Below are positions 41,287 to 54,736 of a DNA stretch of 64,000 nt, in pieces. A program made the translations under genes and the position numbers. The stretch is taken from assembly GCF_900112345.1 (NCBI RefSeq), contig NZ_FOLB01000010.1, positions 1 through 64,000 on the forward strand, given 5' to 3'. Under the pieces are notes generated by a model. That model was not told the DNA's origin. It worked only from the letters and a program-made list of their open reading frames with translations, and ran no database searches. Each line of letters starts with the position of its first letter. Within the stretch, counting starts at the first letter, position 1. This DNA is from Nocardioides terrae. Its GTDB lineage: Bacteria > Actinomycetota > Actinomycetes > Propionibacteriales > Nocardioidaceae.

Positions 41287-41883
41287 TCAGGCGCCGACGA
41301 TCCGCAGCGCCAGCACCGCCATGTGGTCACCGACGTCGTCGGGCGTCCAGCGGCCGTCGTCGCGGTACCACCGGGCGATGTCGATGCCGAGCGACAGGAC
41401 CGCCGTCGTCGCCATGCTCACCTCGGGGACGTCGAACTCGCCCGAGGCGATGCCGTCCTCGATGACCGCGCGCACCTCCTGCTCGATGGCGATGCGCAGC
41501 GCGCGGATCTCCTCGCGGTGGTCGGGGGAGAGCGCCTCGAGCTCGTAGTTCACGATCCGCGCCCAGGTGTGGCCCTGCGCGTGGTGCCGGCCGAACTCGC
41601 GCGCGATGGCCGCCAGTCGCTCGCTCGGCGTCGCAGCCGAGCCGGCCGCGCCAGCGCGACGCACCAGGTCGAGCGTCGTCCGGTGCCCGTCGCGGGAGAT
41701 GACGTGGAGAAGCTCCTCCTTGGAGCGGTGGTGCACGTAGACCGCCGCCGGGCTCATCCCGGCCGCGGCGGCGATGTCGCGCGTCGTCGTGCCGTGGAAC
41801 CCCTTCGCGCCGAAGGCCCGCACCGCGGCCTCGATCAGCCGGGCGCGGGTGAGGTCGCCACGGGTCTCGGGCAACGCGCTCAT
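41287..41883 (-). CDS. TetR-family transcriptional repressor
   Basis: 198 residues. The N-terminal helix-turn-helix reads RLIEAAVRAFGAKGFHGTTTRDIAAAAGMSPAAVYVHHRSKEELLHVI. The C-terminal ligand domain begins HRTTLDLVRRAG and resembles fatty-acid/CoA-sensing members that sit beside acyl-CoA dehydrogenases. It is divergent from the eight-gene operon, and a 16-bp palindrome lies between them. Acyl-CoA is the probable inducer class. Confidence 0.9.
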   Translation of the reverse strand: MSALPETRGDLTRARLIEAAVRAFGAKGFHGTTTRDIAAAAGMSPAAVYVHHRSKEELLHVISRDGHRTTLDLVRRAGAAGSAATPSERLAAIAREFGRHHAQGHTWARIVNYELEALSPDHREEIRALRIAIEQEVRAVIEDGIASGEFDVPEVSMATTAVLSLGIDIARWYRDDGRWTPDDVGDHMAVLALRIVGA

Positions 41884-41945
41884 CGGGCCTCCTCATCGTG
41901 ACGCGGGGATTGACCGCGCCGACGTCGTACGGCATCGTGGCCATC

Positions 41946-41961
41946 CTAAGCAAGCGCTTAG
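41946..41961. promoter_or_regulatory. TetR operator CTAAGC-AAGC-GCTTAG
   Basis: A palindrome with perfect 6-bp arms, 27 bases before the first operon gene and 62 before the regulator start. The sequence type (TAAGCnnnnGCTTA) is common in front of actinobacterial fatty-acid catabolism genes. Confidence 0.7.
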
Positions 41962-41988
41962 TCATGTGACCAGCCCAGAGGAGACCAC

Positions 41989-42744
41989 GTGCCCGGACGG
42001 TTCGACGGCAGGACAGCGATCGTGACGGGGGCGAGCCGGGGCATCGGCCTCGCGATCGCCCAGCGACTGGTGAGCGACGGAGCCCGTGTGGTCCTCACCG
42101 CCCGCAAGACCGACGCCCTCGAGCAGGCGGTCGCCGAGCTCGGCGGCCCCGAGCACGCGATCTTCGTCGCCGGGCACGCCGACGACCCCGACCACCGGGC
42201 CGAGACGGTCACTGCGGCGGTGGAGACGTTCGGCAGCCTTGACCTGCTGGTCAACAACACCGGCATCAATCCGACCTACGGACCGCTGATGGGCCTCGAC
42301 CTCTCGGCCGCGCGCAAGATGGTCGAGGTCAACTGCCTCTCGGCGATCGCGTGGATCCAGCAGGCCCACCGGGCCTGGATGGGCGAGCACGGCGGGGCGG
42401 TCGTCAACGTCGCCTCAGTCGGCGGCCTCCGGCCGGCGCCCGGCATCGCGATGTACGGCGCCACCAAGGCGATGCTCATCCACCTCACCCAGGAGCTCGC
42501 CGTCGAGCTCGGCCCGAGCATCCGGGTCAACGCGGTCGCCCCCGCGGTGGTGAAGACGAAGTTCGCGACCGCGCTCTACGAAGGGCGCGAGGACGAGGTC
42601 GCGGCGACCTACCCGCTCAAGCGGCTTGGCGTCCCCGACGACGTGGGCTCCGTCGTGGCCTTCCTGCTCTCCGACGACGCGGCGTGGATGACCGGCCAGG
42701 CGCTCGTCATCGACGGCGGCCTGCTGCTCGCCGGCGGCGTCTGA
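41989..42744 (+). CDS. SDR family oxidoreductase (FabG/3-hydroxyacyl-CoA dehydrogenase-like)
   Basis: 251 residues. The cofactor loop is TAIVTGASRGIGLAIAQRL, then LLVNNTGINP, Ser in NVASVGGL and the catalytic pair YGATKA, ending FLLSDDAAWMTGQALVIDGG, all of the classical NAD(P)-dependent fold. As first gene after the TetR operator it may oxidise a hydroxyacyl-CoA or hydroxy acid. It starts at GTG 41989. The next gene begins 3 bases after its stop. Confidence 0.9.
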   Translation: MPGRFDGRTAIVTGASRGIGLAIAQRLVSDGARVVLTARKTDALEQAVAELGGPEHAIFVAGHADDPDHRAETVTAAVETFGSLDLLVNNTGINPTYGPLMGLDLSAARKMVEVNCLSAIAWIQQAHRAWMGEHGGAVVNVASVGGLRPAPGIAMYGATKAMLIHLTQELAVELGPSIRVNAVAPAVVKTKFATALYEGREDEVAATYPLKRLGVPDDVGSVVAFLLSDDAAWMTGQALVIDGGLLLAGGV

Positions 42745-42747
42745 GCG

Positions 42748-43527
42748 ATGGACCTCACCGGCAAGGGCGTCGTGGTCACCGGCGCCGGTCACGGGATCGG
42801 CCGGGCGCTCGCCCGGCGGATGGCCGCGGGCGGCGCCAGGGTCGTGGTCAACGACCTCGATGCCGAGGCGGCCGAGGCCGTCGCCACCGAGATCCAGGGG
42901 TACGCCGCACCCGGCGACGCGGCCTCGGCCGTCGGCGTCGCCGCGCTGGTCGAGCGTGCGAGGGCGGCACTCGGCGACATCGACGTCTGGTTCGGCAACG
43001 CCGGGATCGACCGCGGCAACGGGCTCGACGCACCCGACGAGGACTGGTCGGCGGCGCTCGACGTCAACGTGATGGCCCACGTGCGGGCCGCCCGGCTGCT
43101 CGTCCCCGACTGGGCCGAGCGCGGAGCCGGGCGCTTCGTCGTCACCGCCTCCGCGGCCGGCCTGCTGACGATGCTCGGCAGCCCGACGTACTCCGTCTCC
43201 AAGCACGGTGCAGTCGCCTTCGCCGAGTGGCTGTCGGCGACCTATCGTCACCGCGGCGTCGTCGTGCAGGCCATCTGCCCGCAAGGCGTTCGGACCCGCA
43301 TGTACGAGGACGCCGGGGCGCTCAAGGAGGTGCTCAGCCACGACTCCGTGCTGACGCCCGAGGAGGTCGCCGAGGCCGCGTGGGCGGCGCTCGACGGCGA
43401 CCGGTTCCTGGTGCTGCCGCACCCGCAGGTGCAGGACTATTACGCCGCCCGGGCCACCGACACCGACCGGTGGCTGGGCGGGATGAACCGGGTGCAGCAG
43501 CACCTCGACCAGAAGGGCGACTCATGA
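42748..43527 (+). CDS. SDR family oxidoreductase
   Basis: 259 residues. Cofactor loop GVVVTGAGHGIGRALARRMAAGGARVVVNDLD with an acidic NAD-preferring residue (D) after strand 2; FGNAGIDRG; Ser in TASAAGLL; catalytic YSVSKHGAVAF. The C-terminal tail (TDTDRWLGGMNRVQQHLDQKGDS) is typical of SDRs linked to acyl-CoA dehydrogenase clusters. It overlaps the next gene as ATGA. Substrate unknown. Confidence 0.9.
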   Translation: MDLTGKGVVVTGAGHGIGRALARRMAAGGARVVVNDLDAEAAEAVATEIQGYAAPGDAASAVGVAALVERARAALGDIDVWFGNAGIDRGNGLDAPDEDWSAALDVNVMAHVRAARLLVPDWAERGAGRFVVTASAAGLLTMLGSPTYSVSKHGAVAFAEWLSATYRHRGVVVQAICPQGVRTRMYEDAGALKEVLSHDSVLTPEEVAEAAWAALDGDRFLVLPHPQVQDYYAARATDTDRWLGGMNRVQQHLDQKGDS

Positions 43528-44540
43528 GCGGGCCGCAGATGAAGGCGTGGCGCGTGGCCGAGCTCGGCGAGCCGGGGGCGGTGATGCGGCTCGAGGACGT
43601 CGAGGCGCCGACGCCGGGCCCGCGCCAGCTGGTCGTGAAGGTGCTGGCGTCGCCCGCGAACTTCCCCGACGCGCTGATGTGCCGTGGGCTCTACCAGGTC
43701 CGGCCCGACCTGCCGTTCACGCCGGGCGTCGAGCTGTGCGGCGAGGTCATCGCGCTCGGTGACGAGCTCGACGGCACGGGGTTCGCCGTCGGCGACCGCG
43801 TCATCGGCGGCGCCGTGCTGCCGTACGGCGGCTTCGCCGAGGTCGCCCTGATGGACGCCGCGACGACCTTCCCCGCGCCCGCGTCGCTCGACGACGCCCA
43901 GGCGGCCTCTCTCTACATCGGCTACCAGACCGGCTGGTTCGGGCTGCACCGCCGAGCGGCCCTGAAGGCCGGCGAGACGCTGCTGGTCCACGCCGCCGCG
44001 GGCGGCGTCGGCAGCGCGGCCGTCCAGCTCGGCAAGGCGGCCGGTGCGACGGTCATCGGCGTGGTGGGCGGCCCGGAGAAGGCCGAGGTCGCCCGCGCCC
44101 TCGGCGCCGACGTCGTGGTGGACCGGCACACGGAAGGCCCCGCCGGTGACTGGGTGGCGGTCGTCAAGGAGCACACGGGCGGCCGCGGCGCCGACGTCGT
44201 CTACGACCCCGTCGGCGGCGAGACCTACCAGCGGTCCACGAAGTGCGTCGCCTTCGAGGGGCGCATCCTGGTGATCGGCTTCGCCGGCGGCGACATCCAG
44301 TCCGCGGCGCTCAACCACGCGCTGATCAAGAACTACTCGATCGTCGGGCTGCACTGGGGCCTCTACAACCTGGTCGACCCGGCAGCAGTCGCCCAGTGCC
44401 ACACCGAGCTCACCGACCTCGCCGACCGTGGGCTCGTGCGGCCGTTCGTCAGCGAGCGGCTCGGGCTGGAGCAGGCGGCGGACGGCGTACAACGGCTCGC
44501 CGACGGCACCACCGTCGGCCGGGTCGTGATCACGCCATGA
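43524..44540 (+). CDS. Quinone oxidoreductase-like MDR family protein
   Basis: 338 residues, zinc-free medium-chain reductase: MKAWRVAELGEPGAVMRLEDV, FTPGVELCGEVIALGDELDG, HAAAGGVGSAAVQLGKAAGATVIGVVGG (NADPH site), DVVYDPVGGETYQRS. Relatives reduce quinones or enoyl-CoA double bonds with NADPH. Inside this operon a reduction of an unsaturated acyl intermediate is plausible. ATGA overlaps both neighbours. Confidence 0.9.
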   Translation: MSGPQMKAWRVAELGEPGAVMRLEDVEAPTPGPRQLVVKVLASPANFPDALMCRGLYQVRPDLPFTPGVELCGEVIALGDELDGTGFAVGDRVIGGAVLPYGGFAEVALMDAATTFPAPASLDDAQAASLYIGYQTGWFGLHRRAALKAGETLLVHAAAGGVGSAAVQLGKAAGATVIGVVGGPEKAEVARALGADVVVDRHTEGPAGDWVAVVKEHTGGRGADVVYDPVGGETYQRSTKCVAFEGRILVIGFAGGDIQSAALNHALIKNYSIVGLHWGLYNLVDPAAVAQCHTELTDLADRGLVRPFVSERLGLEQAADGVQRLADGTTVGRVVITP

Positions 44541-45202
44541 CGCAGGTGGAGGCGGTCGTCCTCGACTACGGCGGCGTGATGACGACGCCGATGGGCGACT
44601 CGATCCGGGCGTGGATCGCCGCCGACGGCATCGACCCCCAGTCGTTCAGTCGGACCCTCAAGGCATGGCTCGCCCGCGACGCGCCGGCCGGTACGCCGAT
44701 CCACCGGCTCGAGACCGGTGAGCTGGACGCCGACGAGTTCGGTGTGCTGCTCGCCGCCGAGCTGGCCCGTCACGACGGCGAGCCGGTCGACCCCGAGGGC
44801 CTCCTCGGCCGGCTCTTCGCGGAGATCCGCGTCGAGTCGGCGATGTTCGACCTCGTCGCCGACCTGCGCCCGCTCGGCGTGCGCACCGGGCTGCTCTCCA
44901 ACAGCTGGGGCGACATCTACCCGCGCGAGCGGATCGCGGCCGCGTTCGACCACGTCGTCATCTCCGCCGAGGTGGGCCTGCGCAAGCCCCAGCCGGAGAT
45001 CTTCCGTCTCGCTCTCGACGGGCTCGGCGTCGCGGCCGGGCAGGCCGTCTTCGTCGACGACGCCGAGCCGAACCTCATCGGCGCCCGTGCGGTCGGGCTG
45101 CGCACGATCCTGCACACCGACCCGGTCACGACCCGCGCGGAGCTCGTCGCGCTCGTGCCGGGACTCCGCCCGACCCCGACCGGCCGAGGAGCCATCCAGT
45201 GA
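44537..45202 (+). CDS. HAD-family hydrolase, ACAD10 N-domain-like
   Basis: 221 residues. HAD motif I is AVVLDYGGVMTTP with nucleophile Asp10; the second Asp of the usual DxD is Gly12. Motif II is LLSNSWGD, motif III Lys is in GLRKPQPEIFRLAL, and motif IV is FVDDAEPNLIGA. The FDxGGV-type motif is shared with the HAD domain of ACAD10 and soluble epoxide hydrolase relatives. It is followed at once by the kinase-like and dehydrogenase genes in the ACAD10 domain order. It may act on a phosphorylated intermediate, but loss of the general acid leaves activity open. Confidence 0.85.
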   Translation: MTQVEAVVLDYGGVMTTPMGDSIRAWIAADGIDPQSFSRTLKAWLARDAPAGTPIHRLETGELDADEFGVLLAAELARHDGEPVDPEGLLGRLFAEIRVESAMFDLVADLRPLGVRTGLLSNSWGDIYPRERIAAAFDHVVISAEVGLRKPQPEIFRLALDGLGVAAGQAVFVDDAEPNLIGARAVGLRTILHTDPVTTRAELVALVPGLRPTPTGRGAIQ

Positions 45203-46245
45203 GCGACGTCCCCGGACTCGACCTGTCCCGGCTGGGTGCGTGGTTCGCCGACCACGTGCCCGGGGTCTCGACGGGCTCGACCGCCGAGGTCCGGCTCACC
45301 GCCCGCCACATCAGCGGCGGCAAGTCCAACCTCACCTACGAGGTCTCCGACGGATCGAGCTCCTGGATCGTGCGCCGGCCGCCGCTCGGGCACGTGCTGG
45401 CGACCGCTCACGACATGGCCCGCGAGCACCGGGTGATGACGGCCCTGCGCGAGACCGTCGTCCCGGTGCCGCTCACCTACGCGCTCTGCGAGGACACCGA
45501 CGTGGTCGGCGCGCCCTTCTACGTCATGGAGAAGGTCGACGGGACCCCCTACCGCAGCGCCGCGGAGCTGCGCGGGCTCGGCGCTGAGCGCACCCGTGCG
45601 ATCACCGAGCGGCTCGTCGACACCCTCGTCGCCCTGCACGAGGTCGACCCGGCAGCGGTCGGGCTGGCCGACTTCGGCCGCCCCGAGGGCTTCCTCGCCC
45701 GCCAGGTCGGCCGCTGGCGCAAGCAGATGGAGGCGTCGTACCACCGCGACCTCCCCGCCGCCGACGAGCTGCACGCACGGCTCGCGGCGAGCATCCCGCC
45801 CGAGGGGGCGGCGGGGATCGTGCACGGCGACTACCGGCTCGACAACGTGCTGGTCGGGACCGGCCCCGACGACCGTGACCGCCTCAACGCGGTCGTCGAC
45901 TGGGAGATGGCCACGCTCGGCGACCCGCTCACCGACCTGGCCCTGATGCTGCTCTACCAGCGCCTGGCCGCCTTCGGCGGCGACACGGTCAGCGACGTCA
46001 GCACCGCACCCGGCTACCTCGCCGAGCAGGAGATCCTGGCCCGCTACGACGCCGCGAGCCACCGCGACCTCGGCCACTTCGGCTTCTACCTCGGGCTGGC
46101 GGCCTACAAGCTCGCCGCGATCCTCGAGGGCATCCACTACCGCTTCCTCCAGGGCCAGACGGTCGGGGAGGGGTTCGACACCATCGGCGACGCCATCCAC
46201 CCGCTGCTCGACGCCGGCCTGGCCGCACTCAAGGAGAAGAACTGA
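45199..46245 (+). CDS. APH-like kinase (ACAD10/11-associated phosphotransferase)
   Basis: 348 residues of the aminoglycoside phosphotransferase/choline kinase fold. Nucleotide loop HISGGKSNLTYEV, hinge FYVMEKVDGTPYR, catalytic loop GIVHGDYRLDNVLVG (HxDxxxxN) and metal site VVDWEMATLGDPLTDLALML. This subgroup is not an antibiotic resistance enzyme: it is the free-standing form of the kinase domain in ACAD10 and ACAD11 and of LvaA in levulinate catabolism, where a 4-hydroxyacyl-CoA is phosphorylated. Overlaps both neighbours (ATGA, TGATG). Confidence 0.87.
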   Translation: MSDVPGLDLSRLGAWFADHVPGVSTGSTAEVRLTARHISGGKSNLTYEVSDGSSSWIVRRPPLGHVLATAHDMAREHRVMTALRETVVPVPLTYALCEDTDVVGAPFYVMEKVDGTPYRSAAELRGLGAERTRAITERLVDTLVALHEVDPAAVGLADFGRPEGFLARQVGRWRKQMEASYHRDLPAADELHARLAASIPPEGAAGIVHGDYRLDNVLVGTGPDDRDRLNAVVDWEMATLGDPLTDLALMLLYQRLAAFGGDTVSDVSTAPGYLAEQEILARYDAASHRDLGHFGFYLGLAAYKLAAILEGIHYRFLQGQTVGEGFDTIGDAIHPLLDAGLAALKEKN

Positions 46246-47492
46246 TGGACTTCGCGTTCGACGCGCGCACCGAGGAGCTGCGTGCCGACCTGCTCGACCT
46301 CATGGAGAGCCACATCCACCCGGCCGAGCAGACCTTCCACGAGCAGGTCGAGGCGCTCGACGACCGCTTCGCCTGGGACTCCGCGCCCGTGCTCGCCGAG
46401 CTCCGCGCCGAGGCGCGTCGCCGCGGCCTGTGGAACGTCTGGCTCCCGGGCGAGCGCGGCGCCGGGCTGACCAACCTGGCCTACGCCCCGCTCGCCGAGA
46501 TCACGGGCCGGGCGATCCAGCTCGCGCCCGCCGTGCTCAACTCCGCCGCGCCGGACACCGGCAACATGGAGGTCCTCAACGACTTCGGCACCGACGCGCA
46601 GAAGGAGCAGTGGCTGACGCCGCTGCTCGAGGGTGAGATCCGCTCGGCCTTCGCGATGACCGAGCCCGACGTCGCCTCCTCCGACGCGACCAACATCCAG
46701 CTCAGCATCGTCCGTGACGGCGACCACTACGTCCTCAACGGCCGCAAGTGGTGGATCACCGGGGCGATGAACCCGAACTGCCGGATCTTCGTCGTGATGG
46801 GCAGGACCGACCCGTCGCGCCCAGAGAATCCGGCGCAGCGGCACCGCCAGCAGTCGATGGTGCTCGTCCCGCGCGACACCCCCGGTCTCGAGGTCAAGCG
46901 CGCCATGCACGTCCTCGGGTACGACGACCACGACCACGGCGGCCACGCCGAGCTGTCCTTCACCGACGTGCGGGTGCCGGTCGAGAACCTGATCGGCGAT
47001 GAGGGCTCGGGCTTCGCGATCGCCCAGGCGCGGCTCGGGCCCGGCCGCATCCACCACTGCATGCGCTCGATCGGCGTCGCCGAGCGGGCGATCGAGCTGA
47101 TGTGCGCCCGGGCGTCCTCCCGGGTCGCGTTCGGCCGGCCGATCGCCGACCAGGGCGTCGTACGCGACTGGATCGCTGAGTCCCGCGTCCGGATCGAGCA
47201 GCTGCGCCTGCTGGTGCTCAAGACCGCCTGGCTGATGGACACCGTCGGCAACCGCGGAGCGCACACCGAGATCCAGGCGATCAAGATCGCCACGCCGACG
47301 ACGGTCCAGTGGATCCTCGACAAGGCGATCCAGGTGCACGGCGCCGGCGGGCTGTCCCAGGACTTCCCGCTCGCCGCGGCCTACGCCGGCATCCGCACCC
47401 TGCGGTTCGCCGACGGCCCTGACGAGGTGCACAAGAACGCGCTGGCGAAGGCCGAGCTCGCCCGCCAGTCCACCCGGGAGGTGACCCGATGA
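46245..47492 (+). CDS. Acyl-CoA dehydrogenase, ACAD10/11 type
   Basis: 415 residues. FAD/substrate motifs AFAMTEPDVASSDATNIQ and GRKWWITGAMNPNCRIFVVMGRTDP, then RVAFGRPIADQGVVRDWIAESR and HGAGGLSQDFPLAAAYAGIRTLRFADGPDEVHKNALAKAEL. The GAxxPxCxxxxVMG and LRFADGPDEVH blocks match ACAD10/11 rather than ordinary FadE. The position of the usual catalytic Glu (YEGT) is Asp in ADGP. With the preceding kinase it could remove a phosphate from a 4-phosphoacyl-CoA to give an enoyl-CoA. Confidence 0.9.
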   Translation: MDFAFDARTEELRADLLDLMESHIHPAEQTFHEQVEALDDRFAWDSAPVLAELRAEARRRGLWNVWLPGERGAGLTNLAYAPLAEITGRAIQLAPAVLNSAAPDTGNMEVLNDFGTDAQKEQWLTPLLEGEIRSAFAMTEPDVASSDATNIQLSIVRDGDHYVLNGRKWWITGAMNPNCRIFVVMGRTDPSRPENPAQRHRQQSMVLVPRDTPGLEVKRAMHVLGYDDHDHGGHAELSFTDVRVPVENLIGDEGSGFAIAQARLGPGRIHHCMRSIGVAERAIELMCARASSRVAFGRPIADQGVVRDWIAESRVRIEQLRLLVLKTAWLMDTVGNRGAHTEIQAIKIATPTTVQWILDKAIQVHGAGGLSQDFPLAAAYAGIRTLRFADGPDEVHKNALAKAELARQSTREVTR

Positions 47493-48676
47493 CGCCTGCC
47501 GAGCTGCGGGAGCGGGTCGAGGCCTTCCTCGCCGAGCACCCGCCGGCCACCACCGACCGGCGCGAGTTCCTCCACGCCCGCTACGCCGCCGGGCTGGCCT
47601 GGGTGCACTTCCCGGAGGGCCACGGCGGCCTCGGCCTCTCCCGCGGCCTGCACCCGCTGGTCGAGTCGCTCTTCACGACCGCCGGAGCGCCGGACAACAA
47701 CTCCCGCACCAACGGCATCGGGCTCGGCATGGTCGCCCCGACGATCCTGACCTACGGCAGCGAGGAGCAGCGCGAGCGGTTCCTCGAGCCGCTGTGGTGC
47801 GGCGAGGAGATCTGGTGCCAGCTCTTCTCCGAGCCCGGCGCGGGCTCCGACCTCGCCGGCCTCGCCACCCGGGCCGTCCCCGACGGCGAGGAGTGGGTCG
47901 TCAACGGGCAGAAGGTGTGGACGTCAGGCGCTCACAACGCCGACTTCGCCATCCTGGTCGCGCGCACCGACCCTGACGTACCCAAGCACCGCGGGATCAC
48001 CTACTTCCTCGCCGACATGCACGACCCGGGCGTCGACGTACGCCCGCTGCGCCAGATCACGGGCGAGGCGGAGTTCAACGAGGTCTTCCTGACCGACGTC
48101 CGCATCCCCGACCCGATGCGGGTCGGCGCGGTCGGCGACGGCTGGCGGGTCGCCAACGGCACCCTCAACAACGAGCGGGTCGCGATCGGCGGAAGCGCGC
48201 TTCCCCGCGAGGGCGGCATGCTCGGCACCGTGGCGCGGTCCTGGCGCGAGCACCACGACCAGCACACCCCCGAGCTGCACGACCGGCTGATGCGCCTCTA
48301 CGTCGAGGGGGAGGTCGCGCGGCACACCGGCCAGCGGCTGCGCCAGCAACTCGCCTCCGGCCAGCCCGGCCCGGCCGGCGCGACGATGAAGCTCACCTTC
48401 GCCCGGCTCAACCAGCAGCTCAGCGGCCTCGACCTGGAGATCCGCGGGGCCGAGGGGCTGCGCTACGAGAGCGAGCCCGGCTGGACCATGCGCCGGCCCG
48501 ACGAGGTCGACTTCACCGGCCGCGACGCGGTCTACCGCTACCTGCGCGCCAAGGGGAACTCCATCGAGGGCGGAACCTCGGAGATCCTGCGCAACATCGT
48601 CGCCGAGCGCGTGCTGGGCCTGCCGGCCGAGCCGCGCGTCGACAAGGACGTCCCCTGGAACGAGGTGCCACGATGA
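47489..48676 (+). CDS. Acyl-CoA dehydrogenase (FadE, catalytic partner)
   Basis: 395 residues. WCQLFSEPGAGSDLAGLATRA, GEEWVVNGQKVWTSGAHNADFAILVARTDP and the catalytic-base region AKGNSIEGGTSEILRNIVAERVLGLP, keeping the Glu. The N-terminus is short, starting directly at HFPEGHGGLGLSRGLHP. Size and motifs fit the catalytic half of the heteromeric FadE pairs known from actinobacterial steroid side-chain catabolism, with the next gene as partner. ATGA overlaps both neighbours. Confidence 0.9.
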   Translation: MTPAELRERVEAFLAEHPPATTDRREFLHARYAAGLAWVHFPEGHGGLGLSRGLHPLVESLFTTAGAPDNNSRTNGIGLGMVAPTILTYGSEEQRERFLEPLWCGEEIWCQLFSEPGAGSDLAGLATRAVPDGEEWVVNGQKVWTSGAHNADFAILVARTDPDVPKHRGITYFLADMHDPGVDVRPLRQITGEAEFNEVFLTDVRIPDPMRVGAVGDGWRVANGTLNNERVAIGGSALPREGGMLGTVARSWREHHDQHTPELHDRLMRLYVEGEVARHTGQRLRQQLASGQPGPAGATMKLTFARLNQQLSGLDLEIRGAEGLRYESEPGWTMRRPDEVDFTGRDAVYRYLRAKGNSIEGGTSEILRNIVAERVLGLPAEPRVDKDVPWNEVPR

Positions 48677-49812
48677 CCGCCCCCACCACCGGCCCCAACC
48701 CCGACCCGAGCCCCGACGAGCTGGTGCTGCTCGACACCGACGACGACCGGGACCTGCGCGCGACCGTCGCCGGCTACCTGGCCGCCCGCTGTCCCTCGAC
48801 CGCGGTCGCCGCGGTCTACGATGGCGACCGGTCCGTCGTCGCGCCGCTCTGGCGCGGGCTGGCCACCGAGCTCGGCCTCGCCGGCCTCCTCGTCCCCGAG
48901 TCGTACGCCGGCGCCGGCGCGACCCCCCGCGACGCCGCCGTCGTCCTGGAGGAGCTCGGCCGGTCTGTCGCCCCGGTGCCGTTCCTGACCAGCTCGGTGA
49001 TCGCCGCGACAACGCTCGCGCACGCCTCGACCGACGCCGGCCGCTCCCTGCTGGCGGACCTCGCCGAGGGCGGGCGGACGGTCGCCCTGGTGGTCCCGCT
49101 GACGACCGCCTTCGACGCCGACGTCCCGGTCGTGCAGGGACACGGGCAGGTGCACGTGCGCAGCGTGGCCGGAGCCCTTGACGCCGACACCCTGCTGGTC
49201 CCGGTCGCGGCCGGCGACGGGATCGAGCTCCACGCGGTCCCGGCGGGCGACGCCCGGATCGAGCCGGTGGTCTCGCTCGACATGAGCCGCGAGCTCGCCG
49301 ACGTCACCGTCGACCCGACGGCCGGCACGGTCGCCGTCGAGGGCGATGCTGCGGCCGGCGTACGCGCGGGGCTGCTGGCGGGGACCACCCTGCTCGCCTC
49401 CGAGCAGGTCGGGATCGCGCAGTGGTGCCTGCAGGCGACCGTCGGCCACCTTCAGGAGCGCCGCCAGTTCGGCCGGGTAGTGGGCGGCTTCCAGGCGCTC
49501 AAGCACCGGCTCGCCGACCTCTACACGGCGGTCGAGGGCGCGAGCGCGACGGCCCGGTTCGCGGCGGCCGCGCTCGCTGCCGACCCGCACGGCGAGGAGG
49601 CTCGGATCGCCGCTCACACGGCCGCGGCCTGGTGCTCGGACGTCGCCGTGCTGGCCGCGGAGGAGGCGGTGCAGCTTCACGGGGGCATCGGCATGACGTG
49701 GGAGCACCCCGCCCACCTCTACCTCAAGCGGGCGAAGGCGGATCAGCTGGCGCTGGGCCTGCCCGGCCACCACCGCGCGCGGCTGGGAGAGCTGGTCGGC
49801 CTCACGGTGTGA
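48673..49812 (+). CDS. Acyl-CoA dehydrogenase (FadE, likely non-catalytic partner)
   Basis: 379 residues. Recognisable core blocks are LATELGLAGLLVPESYAGAGATPRDAAVVLEELGRSVAP, SEQVGIAQWCLQATVGHLQERRQFGRVVGGFQALKHRLADLYTAVE and the C-terminal VQLHGGIGMTWEHPAHLYLKRAKAD. The central flavin motif is degenerate and the Glu of EGGTSEI is absent at the C-terminus. This is the pattern of the partner subunit in alpha2-beta2 FadE complexes. Overlaps its upstream neighbour as ATGA and the convergent regulator by 11 bases. Confidence 0.87.
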   Translation: MTAPTTGPNPDPSPDELVLLDTDDDRDLRATVAGYLAARCPSTAVAAVYDGDRSVVAPLWRGLATELGLAGLLVPESYAGAGATPRDAAVVLEELGRSVAPVPFLTSSVIAATTLAHASTDAGRSLLADLAEGGRTVALVVPLTTAFDADVPVVQGHGQVHVRSVAGALDADTLLVPVAAGDGIELHAVPAGDARIEPVVSLDMSRELADVTVDPTAGTVAVEGDAAAGVRAGLLAGTTLLASEQVGIAQWCLQATVGHLQERRQFGRVVGGFQALKHRLADLYTAVEGASATARFAAAALAADPHGEEARIAAHTAAAWCSDVAVLAAEEAVQLHGGIGMTWEHPAHLYLKRAKADQLALGLPGHHRARLGELVGLTV

Positions 49813-51034
49813 TCGGGTCGACCGCCAGGAGGGCCAGCATCAGCAGCAGCCTGTCCTCGGGGTCGGCGAGGTCGCGGCCGGTGAGCGCCTGCAGCTGCCG
49901 CATCCGGTAGATCACGGTGTTGCGGTGGCAGTAGAGGTCCTGGGCGGCGTGGGTCGGCGAGCCATGATGGGCGAGCAGCGCCCGCAGCGTCGTCATGAGG
50001 ACCTCGGCCTGGTGTGCCGGCTGGGCCAGGACCGGCCCGATCGAGCGACGGACCAGGAGCGCCGTGATCGCGGGGCTGGCCGCGAGCAGCACCTTCGGGA
50101 GCCGCTCCTCCCCGTCCGCGACCTCGGCGGTGCCGCGAGGGATGGTGTCGACCGTGTGAGCGGCGAGCTGGAAGGCGGTGCAGAACCCGGTCAGCCCCTC
50201 CGGTGAGGCCGCCACGCCGACCCGCCCGGACGTGCACGGGCGCAACAGCTGGACGACGTCCACGACGGCCGCGGAGCCCAGCTGGACCAGCCCGAAGTGC
50301 AGGTCGCCCCGCACTTGCCAGTACGACGCCAGGCCGGCTCCGTCGAGCCGGTCGTCGGGATTGCGCAGGGGGCTGTCCCGGTCACCGTCGAAGGCCGCGA
50401 CCACGCAGGCGACGGCGTCGTCGGGCGCGACGCCGAGCACCTCCTGCACCTCCGCGGCGAAGGCGGGGTCGCTGCCCCGGCCCTCGACCAGTCCGTCGAG
50501 CAGCCGGCCCTGCCGGTGGAGGTCGCGACGCTGCAGCAGCGCGCTCTCCTTGCGGTAGGCCGCCGACATCACCGAGTTCTGCACGTCGAGGTTGGACCAG
50601 ACCTTCCGGCCGGCCACCAGCAGGACGTGGTCGTCGACCTGGAGGACCGGGTCGGTCTGGCGCCGTACCAGCGCCTCCCAGAGCACGCGGGTGCCGATCG
50701 TGTAGGCGTTGAGCACCAGCTCCAACGGCACGCCCTGGCGCGCTCGCCGACGCCCCGTCTCGCGCCAGAGGGCGAGCAGCGTGTCGAAGTCCTCGTCCCC
50801 GGCCATTGCCCGCAGCCCGAGCCGGATGTGGTCGCGGGTGCTCCTCCTCAGGTCGGCGCGGATCTCCGGGTCGGCGTGGTCGTACCAGTCCTTGTCGTGG
50901 TCGAGGAGGGTGAGGGTGATCTCGTCGGCGATCGCGTCGCCGCTGCTCAGCAGCGACGCCCAGGCGCGGCCGACGTCGCTCGGTAGGGCGGCCTTCTCCG
51001 GCGCCGTCGCCCGTGTGTCACCCGTCACACGCAT
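49802..51034 (-). CDS. PucR/CdaR-type transcriptional regulator
   Basis: 410 residues. An N-terminal all-helical RsbRD-like region (SDVGRAWASLLSSGDAIADEITLTLLDHDKDW), a middle GGDEF-like domain, and the C-terminal PucR helix-turn-helix LMTTLRALLAHHGSPTHAAQDLYCHRNTVIYRMRQLQALTGRDL. Members usually activate adjacent uptake or catabolic genes. It faces the livG gene; two identical palindromes lie between. ATG 51034 is selected because the long upstream frame is non-coding in character. Confidence 0.88.
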   Translation of the reverse strand: MRVTGDTRATAPEKAALPSDVGRAWASLLSSGDAIADEITLTLLDHDKDWYDHADPEIRADLRRSTRDHIRLGLRAMAGDEDFDTLLALWRETGRRRARQGVPLELVLNAYTIGTRVLWEALVRRQTDPVLQVDDHVLLVAGRKVWSNLDVQNSVMSAAYRKESALLQRRDLHRQGRLLDGLVEGRGSDPAFAAEVQEVLGVAPDDAVACVVAAFDGDRDSPLRNPDDRLDGAGLASYWQVRGDLHFGLVQLGSAAVVDVVQLLRPCTSGRVGVAASPEGLTGFCTAFQLAAHTVDTIPRGTAEVADGEERLPKVLLAASPAITALLVRRSIGPVLAQPAHQAEVLMTTLRALLAHHGSPTHAAQDLYCHRNTVIYRMRQLQALTGRDLADPEDRLLLMLALLAVDPITP

Positions 51035-51099
51035 GCCCCGACACTTGCACGCGGCGCACAGCCCTGCCAAGGCGTCCCGGCGTGTTCCCCGTGCAGTTC

Positions 51100-51135
51100 G
51101 GGCGCTGCGCCCCAACAGGTTTGGGCGCTGCGCCC
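51100..51135. promoter_or_regulatory. Two direct copies of the palindrome GGGCGCTGCGCCC
   Basis: Copies at 51100-51112 and 51123-51135 are offset by 23 bp, about two helical turns, in the divergent region between the PucR-type gene and livG. Both are preceded by TT(C/T). Likely binding site for the regulator, upstream of the importer operon. Confidence 0.6.
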
Positions 51136-51214
51136 ATGTCGGCCACTGTGCGGAGCGACCAAGGTGAGCCCGGAGTGGTGGACAGCCACCCCCCGAGCAG
51201 AGGGACGAGGTGCG

Positions 51215-52015
51215 ATGGCGCAGCCGGTCTCGACCAAAGCCGCAGAGCCGTTGTTCGCAGCCCGCGGCGTCTCCGTCCGCTTCGGCGGCGTGCAGGCGCT
51301 GTCCCAGGTGTCCCTCGAGGTGGCGCCCCACGAGGTCCTCGGCGTCATCGGCCCCAACGGCGCCGGCAAGACGACGCTCTTCAACGTGCTGTGCGGGTTC
51401 GCCGTGCCGGACGAGGGGGAGCTGGCCTGGGAGGGCCGCCCGCTCGGCCGGGTCCGGCCGTCCCAGCTGGCCGGGCTGGGCATGGCCCGCACCCTGCAGG
51501 GCCTCGGCCTCTTCGACCGGATGACGGTGCTCGAGAACGTCATGGTCGGTGCCGACCACCACGCCCGGGCCGGCTTCTGGACGGGCCTGTTCGGTCTCGG
51601 CCACCGCGACGAGGCCCGGCTCGTGGAGCGGTCCCGCGCGGTGCTCGCCAGGCTAGGCGTCGAGGACTACGCCGAGCGGATGCCCGGCGGCCTGCCCTAC
51701 GGCGTGCGCAAGAAGGTCGCGCTGGCCCGTGCCCTCGTCAGCGAGCCGCGGCTGCTGCTGCTCGACGAGCCGGCCAGCGGCCTGTCGCCCCACGAGATGG
51801 AGGAGCTCGGCGGCGTCGTGCGCGACCTCACCGCCACCACCGCGACGCTGCTCGTCGAGCACCACATGGACCTGGTGATGAGCGTGTGCGATCACGTCAC
51901 TGTGCTCGACTTCGGCCGGGTCATCGCCAGCGGGACGCCGGCGCAGGTTCAGGACGACCCGGCGGTCACCGCCGCCTACCTCGGCACGCCCGTCGCCGAC
52001 GGCGAGGTGAGCTGA
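51215..52015 (+). CDS. livG: Branched-chain-type ABC importer ATPase 1
   Basis: 266 residues. Walker A GPNGAGKTTLFNVLCGF, signature region PYGVRKKVALARALVSEPRLLLLDEPASGLSP, with the extended LivG-type insertion (AGFWTGLFGLGHRDEARLVERSRA) and EHHMDLVMSVCDHVTVLDFG. The signature has Gly in YGVRKK in place of LSGGQ, usual for LivG. GAGG precedes ATG 51215. First gene of the importer operon. Confidence 0.92.
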   Translation: MAQPVSTKAAEPLFAARGVSVRFGGVQALSQVSLEVAPHEVLGVIGPNGAGKTTLFNVLCGFAVPDEGELAWEGRPLGRVRPSQLAGLGMARTLQGLGLFDRMTVLENVMVGADHHARAGFWTGLFGLGHRDEARLVERSRAVLARLGVEDYAERMPGGLPYGVRKKVALARALVSEPRLLLLDEPASGLSPHEMEELGGVVRDLTATTATLLVEHHMDLVMSVCDHVTVLDFGRVIASGTPAQVQDDPAVTAAYLGTPVADGEVS

Positions 52016-52719
52016 TGCTCGCCGTCCACGACCTCACCACCACCTACGGCGCCGTCACGGCGCTCGACGGCGTCAGCCTGGAGGCGCCGGCCGGTCAGGT
52101 CACCGCCGTCCTCGGCGCCAACGGCGCGGGCAAGACCACTCTGCTGCGCACGGTGTCCGGGCTGGTCCGGGCGCAGCGCGGCGCGGTCAGCCTCGAGGGC
52201 ACCGACATCACCCGGCTCCCGGCCGAGCGGATGACCGGCCTCGGCATCGCACACGTCCCCGAGGGGCGCGGCGTGATCGCGGAGCTCACCGTCGCGGAGA
52301 ACCTCCGCCTCGGCGGCCTCCACCGGAGGCAGGGGAGCGAGCCGGAGCGTCTCGAGCGGGTCTACGAGCTCTTCCCCGTGCTCGGCGACCGCAGCAACGC
52401 GCTGGCGCACGTGCTGTCCGGCGGCGAGCGGCAGATGCTGGTCATCGGCCGTGCGCTGATGGCCCGGCCCCGGGTGCTGCTCCTCGACGAGCCGTCGCTC
52501 GGGCTGGCGCCCCGGGTGGTGGCGCAGATCTTCGCGCTGCTGCGCACCCTCGTCGAGCGCGACGGCCTCACCGTGCTGCTGGTCGAGCAGAACGCCACCA
52601 GCGCCCTGTCCATCGCTGACCGCGGCGTCGTGCTCGGCCTCGGCCGGGTCGTCGCGACCGAGCCCGCCGAGCGCCTGGCGGCGGACGAGAAGCTCCGCCA
52701 CGCCTACCTGGGATTCTGA
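52015..52719 (+). CDS. livF: Branched-chain-type ABC importer ATPase 2
   Basis: 234 residues, the shorter LivF form: LGANGAGKTTLLRTVSGL, HVPEGRGVIAELTVAENL, VLSGGERQMLVIGRALMARPRVLLLDEPSLGLAP, LLVEQNATSALSIADRGVVLGLG. ATG overlaps the livG stop by one base. It completes the ATPase pair of the importer. Confidence 0.93.
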   Translation: MLAVHDLTTTYGAVTALDGVSLEAPAGQVTAVLGANGAGKTTLLRTVSGLVRAQRGAVSLEGTDITRLPAERMTGLGIAHVPEGRGVIAELTVAENLRLGGLHRRQGSEPERLERVYELFPVLGDRSNALAHVLSGGERQMLVIGRALMARPRVLLLDEPSLGLAPRVVAQIFALLRTLVERDGLTVLLVEQNATSALSIADRGVVLGLGRVVATEPAERLAADEKLRHAYLGF

Positions 52720-52729
52720 GGAGGGCACC

Positions 52730-53608
52730 GTGCAACAGTTCATGACCACGCTGCTGGGGGGCCTCACGCTCGGCGCCGTCTACGCGTCCTTCGCGCTGGC
52801 GCTCTGCCTGATCTGGCGCTCGACCCGCGTGGTGAACTTCGCGCAGGCGCCGATGGCGATGGTGACGACGTACGTCGGCCTGGAGGTCATCGAGGCGACC
52901 GGCTCCTACTGGCTCGGCTTCGCCGTCGCGCTGGCGGCCGGCTTCGTGCTCGGTGCCCTCGTCGAGCGGCTCCTCGTCCGCCACGTCGAGGGGGCCGGCG
53001 ACCTCAACATCGTCATCTTGACGCTCGGGCTCTTCGTGGCGCTGCACGGGCTGGCCGCGCTCGTCTTCGGCTCCGACTACCGCTCGTTCCCCGCGCCCTT
53101 CGGCCTGAAGGGGCTGCACGTCGGCGGCCACAACGTGGCGATCACGCCCTTCGGCGTCTTCACGATCGTCGCGGTGGGCATCGTGCTGGTGCTCCTCGTG
53201 CTGCTCTTCCGCTCCACCGACGTCGGCCTGCGGATGCGGGCCGCCGCGTTCAGCCCCGAGGTCGCCCGGCTCCTCGGCGTCCGGGTCGGCGCGATGCTCA
53301 CGCTCGGCTGGGCGCTCGCCGCCGTGGTCGGCTCGCTCGCCGGTCTCCTCATCGCCGGCGGCAACCTGGTCTTCCCCCAATACATGGACTCGGTCGTCGT
53401 CTACGGCTTCGTCGCCGCGGTGCTCGGAGGGCTGGACAGCCCGGTCGGGTCGGTCGTCGGCGGCCTGATCCTCGGCCTGGTCCTCAGCTTCGTCAGCGGG
53501 TACGTCGCCGGCGACCTCGTCCCGGTGACCGCGCTCATCGTCCTGGTCGGCGTCCTGCTGGTCAGGCCCGGCGGTCTCTTCTCCCACGTCGCCGAGCGGA
53601 GGGTCTGA
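52730..53608 (+). CDS. livH: Branched-chain-type ABC importer permease LivH
   Basis: 292 residues with about eight membrane helices. It starts FMTTLLGGLTLGAVYASFALALCLIWRSTRVVNFAQAPMAMVTTYV, the LivH hallmark of helix-Ala-rich-NFAQ. The cytoplasmic loop MRAAAFSPEVARLLGVRV is the ATPase-coupling region. GTG 52730 follows GAGGAGG. Membrane subunit forming the channel with LivM. Confidence 0.93.
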   Translation: MQQFMTTLLGGLTLGAVYASFALALCLIWRSTRVVNFAQAPMAMVTTYVGLEVIEATGSYWLGFAVALAAGFVLGALVERLLVRHVEGAGDLNIVILTLGLFVALHGLAALVFGSDYRSFPAPFGLKGLHVGGHNVAITPFGVFTIVAVGIVLVLLVLLFRSTDVGLRMRAAAFSPEVARLLGVRVGAMLTLGWALAAVVGSLAGLLIAGGNLVFPQYMDSVVVYGFVAAVLGGLDSPVGSVVGGLILGLVLSFVSGYVAGDLVPVTALIVLVGVLLVRPGGLFSHVAERRV

Positions 53609-54658
53609 GTGTCCACTCTCGCCGTGCGGTCGGCCGCCCTGTGGCGGGTTCCGCTGCTGCGCCACGTCGTCCTCGGCCTGGTCGGGCTGACCGTGATGCT
53701 CTTCGTGCTCGGCTCGCTCAGCCCGTTCCGCGACGCCCAGCTCGCGACCATGGCCTACCTCGCCATCGCCGCGGGCGGGCTGACCGTGCTGACCGGCTTC
53801 AGCGGTCAGCTCTCCCTCGGCCACGGGGCCTTCCTGGCCGTCGGCGCCTACACCACCGCCGTGCTGCTGGAGGACGGTGACCCGCCCTTCCCGCTGGTCG
53901 GCGTCATGGTCGCCGCCGTGGTGGTCACCGTGGCCGTCGGCGCGGTCGTCGGCATCGCCGCCGCCCGGCTGCATGGCCCCTACGTCGCGGGGGCGACCCT
54001 CGCCCTGGCCGTCGCCGTCCCCTCCCTGGCCCGTTACCTCGACGGGCTCGGCCAGGAGCAGGGGCTGCACGTCCGGGTCCCCGACGTGCCGACGTGGTTC
54101 GACGACACCGTCTGGATGATCACGGGGGCCGACGTCGACCCGACCAGCTACGTCGCCTACCTGGGCTGGACGGCGCTGGTGGTCACCTACGTCCTGCTCG
54201 CCAACCTGATGCGCAGCCGGGTCGGACGCACCTGGCGGGCACTGAGCAACGACGACGTCGCCGCTGAGATCGCCGGGGTCCGGCTGGGCCGGGCGCGGGT
54301 GCTCGCCTTCGTGGTCAGCACGGCCGCCGCCGGCCTGGCCGGCTCGCTGATGGCGATGGCGGTGCGGGTGACCTCGCCCAGCGGCTTCTCCGTCGACCTG
54401 TCGGTCACCCTCCTGAGCGCCATCGTGCTCGGCGGCCTGGGCACGCTCAGCGGCGCGCTCATCGGCTCGGCCCTCCTCACGTTCCTGCCCCAGGCAGTCA
54501 CCAGCTGGGGCACCTCGGCCGGTCTCTCCGACGTCCGCGCCGCCGAGCTCGCCCCCGTCGCCTACGGGCTGATCATGATCGCGGTCGTCCTGCTCGCCCC
54601 CGCCGGGATCGTGGGCAGTCTCCGCCGGGTCTGGTGGCGCCGACGAGGCATCGCATGA
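53609..54658 (+). CDS. livM: Branched-chain-type ABC importer permease LivM
   Basis: 349 residues, about nine helices. AYLAIAAGGLTVLTGFSGQLSLGHGAFLAVGAYTTAVL is the LivM signature. The coupling loop is TWRALSNDDVAAEIAGVRLGRARVLAFVVS, followed by LLSAIVLGGLGTLSGALIGSALL. GTG directly follows the livH stop. Second channel subunit. Confidence 0.93.
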   Translation: MSTLAVRSAALWRVPLLRHVVLGLVGLTVMLFVLGSLSPFRDAQLATMAYLAIAAGGLTVLTGFSGQLSLGHGAFLAVGAYTTAVLLEDGDPPFPLVGVMVAAVVVTVAVGAVVGIAAARLHGPYVAGATLALAVAVPSLARYLDGLGQEQGLHVRVPDVPTWFDDTVWMITGADVDPTSYVAYLGWTALVVTYVLLANLMRSRVGRTWRALSNDDVAAEIAGVRLGRARVLAFVVSTAAAGLAGSLMAMAVRVTSPSGFSVDLSVTLLSAIVLGGLGTLSGALIGSALLTFLPQAVTSWGTSAGLSDVRAAELAPVAYGLIMIAVVLLAPAGIVGSLRRVWWRRRGIA

Positions 54659-54736
54659 GCCGTCCGCGCCGTACCCCCAGACGCACCCCAGTCGCACCCA
54701 CGCCCGCACCGGGCAGATGACGAGAAGGAGACAACG

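What the first reader, a model, noticed from the sequence alone, without database searches (positions are those of the whole stretch)
44537..47492. Split ACAD10: HAD, APH-type kinase and ACAD10/11-type dehydrogenase as consecutive overlapping genes
Seen: three overlapping genes encode HAD, APH and ACAD proteins in the same order as the fused domains of vertebrate ACAD10 (ACAD11 has APH-ACAD). The dehydrogenase carries GAMNPNCRIFVVMG and LRFADGPDEVH blocks, matching ACAD10/11 rather than FadE. Known: LvaA-type APH kinases phosphorylate 4-hydroxyacyl-CoA in levulinate catabolism and the ACAD partner eliminates phosphate. Inferred: the operon, with two SDRs, an MDR and a FadE pair, degrades a gamma-hydroxylated or branched acid through a phospho-acyl-CoA, and the adjoining Liv-type importer brings the acid in.
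Basis: partly seen in the sequence, partly recalled or inferred. Interest (0 to 1): 0.72.

Follow-up and report, generated by a model that had tools for sequence, protein, structure and literature searches.

The report
Split bacterial version of human ACAD10
A soil bacterium keeps, as three overlapping genes, the same kinase, dehydrogenase and phosphatase-like parts that animals fuse into one protein for breaking down 4-hydroxy fatty acids, and the repeated pairing of such kinases with a phosphatase-like gene suggests that the poorly understood third part guards the phosphorylation step.

Summary
HAD (44537-45202), APH kinase (45199-46245) and ACAD10/11-type dehydrogenase (46245-47492) overlap by 4 and 1 bases, in ACAD10's domain order. 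The dehydrogenase is ACAD10/11 proper: 440 bits to ACAD11 against 161 for the best other ACAD; the phosphate contacts and catalytic Asp align. [quoted passage not shown]

The less known part is the HAD gene. Of the 80 best loci found with the HAD alone, 42 also hold the kinase and ACAD10/11; in 296 phylum genomes 23 of 67 HAD genes lie within 500 bases of such a kinase. The HAD lacks the second Asp of motif I (DxG), as reported for ACAD10; E. coli YihX, annotated as a phosphatase, has DxG too. In other bacteria a histidine phosphatase sits beside the kinase, and in four mycobacterium-like genomes a PtpB-type phosphatase beside the dehydrogenase. I read the HAD as the companion that restrains or resets the kinase step (inferred). 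It is optional: 8 of 111 ACAD10/11 genes have it within 10 kb.

The Liv importer is not a fixed part: three Nocardioides loci with the same flanking gene lack it. The substrate is open.

The parts
41287..41883 (-). divergent TetR-family regulator
   Evidence: Pfam PF00440 61.0 bits, PF17932 112.5; a TetR gene also lies upstream and divergent in L039, L040, L063 and the Tsukamurella plasmid
41989..42744 (+). SDR oxidoreductase SDRa, perhaps a 4-oxo/4-hydroxyacyl-CoA or 3-hydroxyacyl-CoA dehydrogenase (inferred)
   Evidence: PF13561 198.9 bits; 73% to the Tsukamurella SDRa
42748..43527 (+). second SDR oxidoreductase SDRb
   Evidence: PF00106 138.8 bits; 69%
43524..44540 (+). MDR, NADPH:quinone oxidoreductase family; scanned without its start Met from 43527
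   Evidence: PF00107 101.1 bits; TIGR02824 217.3, under its cut-off 296.8; 78%
44537..45202 (+). HAD protein with motif I DYG; proposed companion of the kinase that restrains or resets its reaction
   Evidence: PF00702 over cut-off; D10, K150, D174, D175 invariant in 27 and in 32 rows, S121 nearly so in the first set and invariant in the second, position 12 G (A once), never D; DxG in all 80 loci; model pLDDT 93.9, nearest folds sEH phosphatase domain and YihX; linkage to kinase
45199..46245 (+). APH-fold 4-hydroxyacyl-CoA kinase, LvaA / ACAD10-11 kinase type
   Evidence: PF01636 181 bits; HGDYRLDN and DWE present, R of the CKRQV/LARQV block kept; PDB hits 9o56, 3dxp, ACAD11
46245..47492 (+). 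ACAD10/11-type (LvaC-type) 4-phosphoacyl-CoA dehydrogenase
   Evidence: 440.7 bits to ACAD11 against 161 for the next ACAD; ARLGPGRIHHCMR and ADGPDEVH match R626, R631, H634, R637, D753 of ACAD11
47489..48676 (+). ordinary acyl-CoA dehydrogenase, large partner of a pair
   Evidence: PF02770 72.1 bits; pimC-like 177.7 bits, under cut-off; sequence lacks the R.R.H.R block
48673..49812 (+). ordinary acyl-CoA dehydrogenase, small partner of the pair
   Evidence: PF00441 80.7 bits; IpdE2-like 173.1 bits, under cut-off

Best explanation
An operon for 4-hydroxyacyl-CoA catabolism by the ACAD10/LvaAC route, with the three ACAD10 domains as separate, overlapping genes. The kinase puts phosphate on the 4-hydroxyl of an acyl-CoA; the ACAD10/11 enzyme removes it with a flavin-mediated step and gives the 2-enoyl-CoA, which enters beta-oxidation (by family knowledge; not assayed here). 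The SDRs and MDR prepare the 4-hydroxyacyl-CoA from oxo or unsaturated precursors or oxidise later products, and the ACAD pair acts in the next round (inferred). The HAD protein is the kinase's companion: it binds, and perhaps hydrolyses, the phosphorylated kinase product, and so restrains the kinase or resets wrongly phosphorylated CoA esters that the dehydrogenase cannot use (inferred, mechanism not shown).
For: Dehydrogenase identity and residues: with the residue list of PMC12440821 (section read). Kinase. Linkage: of 80 loci found by the HAD alone, 42 hold the kinase and ACAD10/11 (the latter on the HAD's strand), 14 hold ACAD10/11 on the opposite strand without kinase, 3 the kinase only, 1 ACAD10/11 only, 20 neither (the motif-based count gave 41/14/4/1/20). 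ACAD10/11 within 10 kb is expected in about 0.0045 of loci by chance, under an assumed 5-Mb genome with 1.1 copies. Second sample: 23 of 67 HAD genes in 296 phylum genomes, window included, have the kinase within 500 bases, 22 of 23 on the same strand and 21 of these with the kinase upstream, the reverse of the window's order. Kinase tree of 71 rows: the two gene orders lie mostly in different supported clades, 13 label changes against 31.4 in shuffles. All 80 HADs read DxG (79 by pattern, L058 by eye). HAD active-site residues are kept. ACAD10's HAD domain lowers kinase activity and has one of the two Asp (PMC11342911, passages and first part of the discussion). An unrelated phosphatase stands beside the kinase elsewhere: histidine phosphatase with RHG motif.
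Against: Most ACAD10/11 genes do without the HAD: of 111 at E<=1e-95 in 296 genomes, 8 have it within 10 kb and 26 have the kinase within 5 kb, the kinase list being cut. 20 of 80 HAD loci have neither partner and 14 have ACAD10/11 without the kinase, so the HAD also has other settings; some of its neighbours there look like housekeeping genes by eye. The 80 loci are the best of 437 matches, found through one conserved HAD pattern, and near relatives are over-represented. Of 8 plasmid ACAD10/11 loci read without regard to phosphatases, none has a HAD and 2 a histidine phosphatase. ACAD10's HAD showed negligible phosphatase activity (PMC11342911). No eukaryotic HAD sequence was available, so homology to ACAD10's HAD beyond fold class and motif was not tested; TIGR02247 scores 84.0, under its cut-off 125.4. 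G062, with the nearest HAD of the phylum sample, has HAD-MaoC-ACAD10/11 with no kinase between. The substrate is unknown.
Confidence: 0.66

Rival explanations
1. The HAD is a pure regulatory subunit, not an enzyme: it occupies its phosphate site with phospho-acyl-CoA and inhibits the kinase by feedback, as proposed for ACAD10.
For: DxG motif in all 80 loci; mutation of the one Asp in ACAD10's HAD raises kinase activity and HAD phosphatase activity was negligible (PMC11342911); HAD gene overlaps the kinase gene.
Against: E. coli YihX, annotated as glucose-1-phosphate phosphatase, also reads DLG at motif I, so DxG does not exclude catalysis; nucleophile Asp, Lys and both acidic residues are invariant in 27 and 32 rows and the Ser nearly so, perhaps more than binding alone needs; phosphatase families of other folds stand beside the kinase elsewhere.
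Confidence: 0.35
2. The HAD is a phosphatase for another metabolite of the pathway (for example a phosphorylated side product of the substrate) and its place next to the kinase is shared regulation only.
For: In 20 of 80 loci the HAD has neither partner within reach; in several Streptomyces (L044, L048, L052, L056) it sits with SDR, thiolase, MaoC or ligase genes and neither partner; on the Rhodococcus opacus plasmid it has the kinase nearby but the best ACAD10/11 match is about 33 kb away.
Against: The recurrent immediate adjacency to the kinase in two gene orders and the HAD-kinase part of ACAD10 point to the kinase step.
Confidence: 0.2
3. The operon serves an ordinary beta-oxidation substrate (for example a branched or steroid side-chain acid) and the kinase/ACAD10/11 pair acts only on a minor hydroxylated by-product.
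For: The ACAD2/ACAD3 pair resembles PimC/PimD and IpdE2 by best hit, and two SDRs and an MDR are general.
Against: In L063 the ACAD pair is absent while SDRa-SDRb-MDR-HAD-APH-ACAD10/11 stays together, so the 4-phospho unit is the core and the pair the option; the ACAD names are all under their cut-offs.
Confidence: 0.2

Closest known systems
Mammalian ACAD10 (HAD-kinase-ACAD chain, cleaved between kinase and ACAD; PMC11342911)
   Same: Same three parts in the same order; ACAD10/11-type residues; HAD with one Asp of the DxD motif (their report)
   Different: Three genes instead of one chain; bacterial operon with SDRs, MDR and an ACAD pair; HAD homology to ACAD10's own domain not tested
Pseudomonas putida lva operon (LvaA kinase, LvaB, LvaC; as described in PMC6692424 and PMC12440821, original paper not held)
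   Same: Separate kinase and ACAD10/11-type genes with an SDR; phospho-acyl-CoA intermediate
   Different: lva has LvaB, reported to bind LvaA; PMC12440821 finds no homologue of ACAD10's HAD in it. The window has a HAD and no CoA ligase gene within the operon
Pseudomonas citronellolis LA18T lva cluster (PMC6692424, passages)
   Same: Kinase, ACAD and a phosphatase gene in the cluster; its authors suggest that the phosphatase may act on 4-phosphovaleryl-CoA
   Different: The phosphatase is a histidine phosphatase, an unrelated fold; its function was not assayed in the passages seen
E. coli YihX and the N-terminal phosphatase domain of soluble epoxide hydrolase
   Same: Among the nearest solved folds to the HAD model (TM 0.73 and 0.77); YihX shares DxG
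   Different: 22-27% identity; yihX has no kinase of this kind or ACAD in its 10-kb surroundings

Membership tests
ACAD10/11 (LvaC) dehydrogenases | closer to ACAD10/11 than to any other ACAD | tested here: met
   440.7 bits to ACAD11, 161 to the best other ACAD in the PDB
ACAD10/11 (LvaC) dehydrogenases | catalytic Asp (D753 in ACAD11) in place of Glu | tested here: met
   ADGPDEVH aligned to the same block of ACAD11
ACAD10/11 (LvaC) dehydrogenases | phosphate site R626, H634, R637, and R631 | tested here: met
   ARLGPGRIHHCMR aligned without gap
ACAD10/11 (LvaC) dehydrogenases | turns 4-phosphoacyl-CoA into 2-enoyl-CoA without electron acceptor | not testable with these tools
   needs an assay
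LvaA / ACAD10-11 kinases | APH fold with catalytic Asp and Asn (D220, N225) and metal Asp | tested here: met
   HGDYRLDN and DWE in the alignment; PF01636
LvaA / ACAD10-11 kinases | CoA contacts R86 and R176 | tested here: inconclusive
   R176 matches the R of LARQV; the R86 numbering could not be matched to the printed chain
ACAD10 HAD domain | first Asp of motif I kept, second absent | tested here: met
   D10-Y-G12 in the window; no D at position 12 in any row
ACAD10 HAD domain | sequence homology to ACAD10's HAD closer than to other HADs | not testable with these tools
   no eukaryotic proteomes held; TIGR02247, which I recall as covering that domain, scores 84.0 under its cut-off 125.4
lva operon | LvaB beside LvaA | not tested
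   no LvaB sequence at hand; no gene lies between HAD and APH or APH and ACAD
lva operon | CoA ligase (LvaE) in the cluster | tested here: not met
   no match to the Tsukamurella ligase in 41-50 kb; the best in the own genome is on another contig, 48%. PMC6692424 reports that lvaE is dispensable in P. putida

The most novel reading that the evidence does not exclude
A phosphatase is a recurrent, though dispensable, third component of the 4-phosphoacyl-CoA pathway, recruited at least three times from unrelated folds (HAD in actinobacteria and, fused, in animals; histidine phosphatase in proteobacteria, deinococci and two streptomycete plasmids; PtpB-type phosphatase beside ACAD10/11 in mycobacterium-like genomes). 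It resets wrongly phosphorylated CoA esters. ACAD10's HAD domain is what remains of it, and PtpB-like proteins, known as secreted virulence factors, would have a metabolic job at home.
Probability: 0.33. Interest if true: 0.8.

Novelty: new variant of a known kind. Interest (0 to 1): 0.58.

Why it matters
The role of the HAD domain of human ACAD10 is open: one group found that it restrains the kinase (PMC11342911), another did not evaluate it and noted that the lva operon has no homologue (PMC12440821). A bacterium with the HAD, kinase and dehydrogenase as separate proteins makes the question directly testable by mixing, leaving out and mutating single proteins. The linkage data also say where to look: at the kinase step. 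If phosphatases of several folds fill the same slot, 4-phosphoacyl-CoA needs a reset, which bears on 4-hydroxy acid and lipid-peroxide metabolism in animals and on engineered levulinate use.

Tried and rejected
Liv importer as part of the unit: rejected. Gamma-lactone entry through a PTE-family lactonase: a PTE-family gene (Pfam PF02126, 289 bits) stands in the Tsukamurella operon, in L060 (74%) and in L167, with weak 30-31% matches in L076 and L090, but the own genome has none (the control rang in 2 of 14 genomes), so it is only a hint about substrates. HAD-kinase fusions in bacteria: none seen; of 29 non-window HAD loci, 18 had a kinase on the same strand, in no case in one reading frame. 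Kinase contact R86: numbering not matched. The alignment with YihX lost motif I in two short rows, so the DLG of YihX was read from the translation. The pattern for motif I misread L040 and missed L058; L040 is caught by the second pattern and L058 reads FDYGGV in the printed letters. ACAD calls by motif missed the truncated L076 and L077; best-hit calls recover one of them. Three of 20 ACAD10/11 regions (L190, L199, L200) were not called and were read. Papers: the lva paper (PMC5705400) is not held. No paper that I found describes a bacterial HAD gene with this kinase (searches; open-licence PMC only). PMC6692424 describes the histidine phosphatase in one species (passages). For PtpB beside ACAD10/11 I searched (listings) and saw passages; none of these passages speaks of the pair; (a Nocardioides paper, passages) gave nothing on the question.
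Full report
What is there. Nine genes form the unit: a divergent TetR gene, then SDRa, SDRb, MDR, HAD, APH kinase, ACAD10/11-type dehydrogenase and a pair of ordinary acyl-CoA dehydrogenases, 41287-49812, with overlaps of 1 to 4 bases from the SDRb/MDR junction on. By nearest sequences (Nocardioides sp. CER19, L039: HAD 74%, a flanking GuaB-like gene 94%, GlpD-type 90%) the organism is Nocardioides-like (GlpD-, ALDH- and GMC-type genes by Pfam, GuaB-like by eye).

The dehydrogenase. It scores 440.7, 440.2 and 438.4 bits against ACAD11 chains and 432.7 against 4hr3, then falls to 161. Against the residue list of Rashan et al. (PMC12440821; abstract, passages and the section on structure), R626, R631, H634, R637 and D753 all align; I checked the numbering by counting along the printed chain, which runs one lower than the paper. 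A deeper relative, 37-41% identical to the Tsukamurella enzyme, keeps R.R.H.R in L129-L132 and L145; the Asp block was matched in four of these five, not in L129.

The kinase. PF01636 at 181 bits; nearest solved chains are 9o56, 3dxp and ACAD11's kinase; catalytic HGDYRLDN and DWE are present. Rashan et al. and Paquay et al. (PMC11342911; abstract, passages and the first of two parts of the discussion) show that the mammalian enzymes phosphorylate 4-hydroxyacyl-CoA and eliminate the phosphate; Paquay et al. also report that bacterial orthologues can replace either part of ACAD10. The window's pair is therefore very likely to do the same; this is inference by family, not shown here.

The HAD and its neighbours. 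A search with the HAD tests linkage without presupposing the partners. In genome contigs 437 places encoded a relative and the best 80 were kept. By best hit, 42 of 80 also hold the kinase, and ACAD10/11 on the HAD's strand; 14 hold ACAD10/11 on the opposite strand and no kinase; 3 the kinase only; 1 ACAD10/11 only; 20 neither (by motif 41/14/4/1/20). Five of the 20 are cut by a contig end 323 to 1,885 bases after the HAD. In 296 genomes of the phylum, 67 HAD genes were found at E<=1e-15; 23, the window's included, have the kinase within 500 bases, 21 of these with the kinase upstream on the same strand, the reverse of the window's order. Of 20 larger stretches then read, chosen mostly because HAD and kinase were adjacent, seven had kinase, HAD and an R.R.H.R dehydrogenase (L129-L132, L144, L145, and L147 with the dehydrogenase on the other strand), one more (L146) had the kinase on the other strand, one had HAD-MaoC-ACAD10/11 without kinase (L148), and 11 had only the kinase-HAD pair. 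A kinase tree of 71 thinned rows puts the two gene orders mostly in different, supported clades; the rows were largely chosen by HAD, so this shows repeated linkage, not frequency.

The other direction. Of 111 ACAD10/11 genes (E<=1e-95) in the same 296 genomes, 26 have the kinase within 5 kb and 8 the HAD within 10 kb, 6 both; the kinase list was cut, so its counts are lower bounds. The HAD is an accessory, as in mammals, where ACAD10 has it and ACAD11 does not.

What the HAD may do. In 27 and in 32 aligned rows D10, K150, D174 and D175 are invariant; S121 is nearly invariant in the first set and invariant in the second; position 12 is G (A once, L038), never D. All 80 loci read DxG. Paquay et al. 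report the same state in ACAD10, negligible phosphatase activity, and more kinase product when the one Asp is mutated. But E. coli YihX, among the nearest solved folds (TM 0.73) and annotated as a phosphatase, reads FDLGN at the same place, so DxG alone does not make a pseudo-enzyme. The AlphaFold model (pLDDT 93.9, pTM 0.89) has the sEH/YihX fold.

Other phosphatases in the neighbourhood. Of 8 plasmid ACAD10/11 neighbourhoods read without regard to phosphatases (8 of the 30 records listed), 2 have a histidine phosphatase beside the kinase (Deinococcus radiodurans, Azospirillum), 6 have the kinase and none a HAD (by annotation). A search with the Azospirillum protein found 22 plasmid records, itself included, at E<=1e-15. 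Eight were read: all 8 have the kinase directly beside it and an RHG motif, and 7 of 8 have an ACAD10/11-type gene within 5 kb; Sulfitobacter CB2047 has other ACADs instead. Five more have an ACAD10/11 match within 3 kb by coordinates alone. Nine were not read; in two of them, Sulfitobacter, the ACAD10/11 match lies about 15 kb off. The same kind of gene in Pseudomonas citronellolis was described in 2019 with the suggestion that it may act on 4-phosphovaleryl-CoA (PMC6692424, passages), so that part is not new. Of 20 further ACAD10/11 regions of the phylum without the HAD, four (L181, L183, L184, L185) have a PtpB-type phosphatase gene directly after the dehydrogenase, three by Pfam PF13350 and the fourth by 61% identity and the HCFAGKDRTG motif; in two others the next gene is a thioesterase-type (L182) or an SDR (L186). 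PMC12323669 (passages) calls PtpB a secreted virulence factor; a table in PMC10598944 (passages) marks it as required for growth on cholesterol, which would fit a metabolic role but proves none.

Surroundings. The fuller operon is seen on a Tsukamurella plasmid: thiolase, SDRa, SDRb, MDR, HAD, FabG, MaoC, kinase, ACAD10/11, ACAD pair, PTE-family gene, CoA ligase. Among the 42 loci with kinase and ACAD10/11 the companions over 150 bits are SDRa 19, MaoC 18, SDRb 17, FabG 16, each ACAD of the pair 13, MDR 11, thiolase 8, TetR 7, ligase 6, PTE 1. In the three loci that share the flanking GlpD-type gene (L039, L040, L063) the operon runs into that gene and the PucR and Liv genes of the window are missing between them, so these were inserted in the window's line or lost in the others; the importer is not a fixed part.

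Verdict. Observation confirmed; chemistry known; the split HAD-kinase-ACAD operon is a variant that I did not find described in the held literature, and its value lies in the HAD.

Noticed in passing
window 49802-56047: PucR-type regulator and Liv-type transporter genes lie between the operon and the GlpD-type gene; three Nocardioides loci that share the GlpD-type gene (L039, L040, L063) lack them there, so they are an insertion here or a loss there.
   Followed up: yes
L181, L183, L184, L185 (unnamed mycobacterium-like genomes): A PtpB-type tyrosine phosphatase gene directly follows the ACAD10/11-type dehydrogenase; no kinase motif was flagged among called genes within 3.6 kb.
   Followed up: partly
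L174, L175, L201-L205, L207: Kinase and ACAD10/11 genes with a histidine phosphatase in proteobacteria, a Deinococcus and a Streptomyces plasmid.
   Followed up: partly
L180 6001-7200 and L200 6255-7448: ACAD10/11-like enzymes with Tyr in place of the phosphate-binding His (RLGPGRMHYAMR), next to a kinase with HGDYRLGN: perhaps another substrate.
   Followed up: no
L081, L082, L087, L088, L092, L094-L097, L100, L106, L107, L112, L114: A HAD (DWGGV in 13, DYGGV in L095) head to head with ACAD10/11 and no kinase found in the stretch (Actinomadura, Nocardiopsis, Thermobifida and others).
   Followed up: partly
L129-L132, L145: A deep relative of ACAD10/11 (37-41% identity; blocks such as RLGPARLAHAMRWIG and RIYDGPSEVH) in ACAD-kinase-HAD order.
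   Followed up: partly
L128 18456-19439, L060, L167 4805-5749: PTE-family genes (possible lactonases) beside the kinase/ACAD10/11 operon, pointing to gamma-lactones as a source of 4-hydroxy acids.
   Followed up: partly
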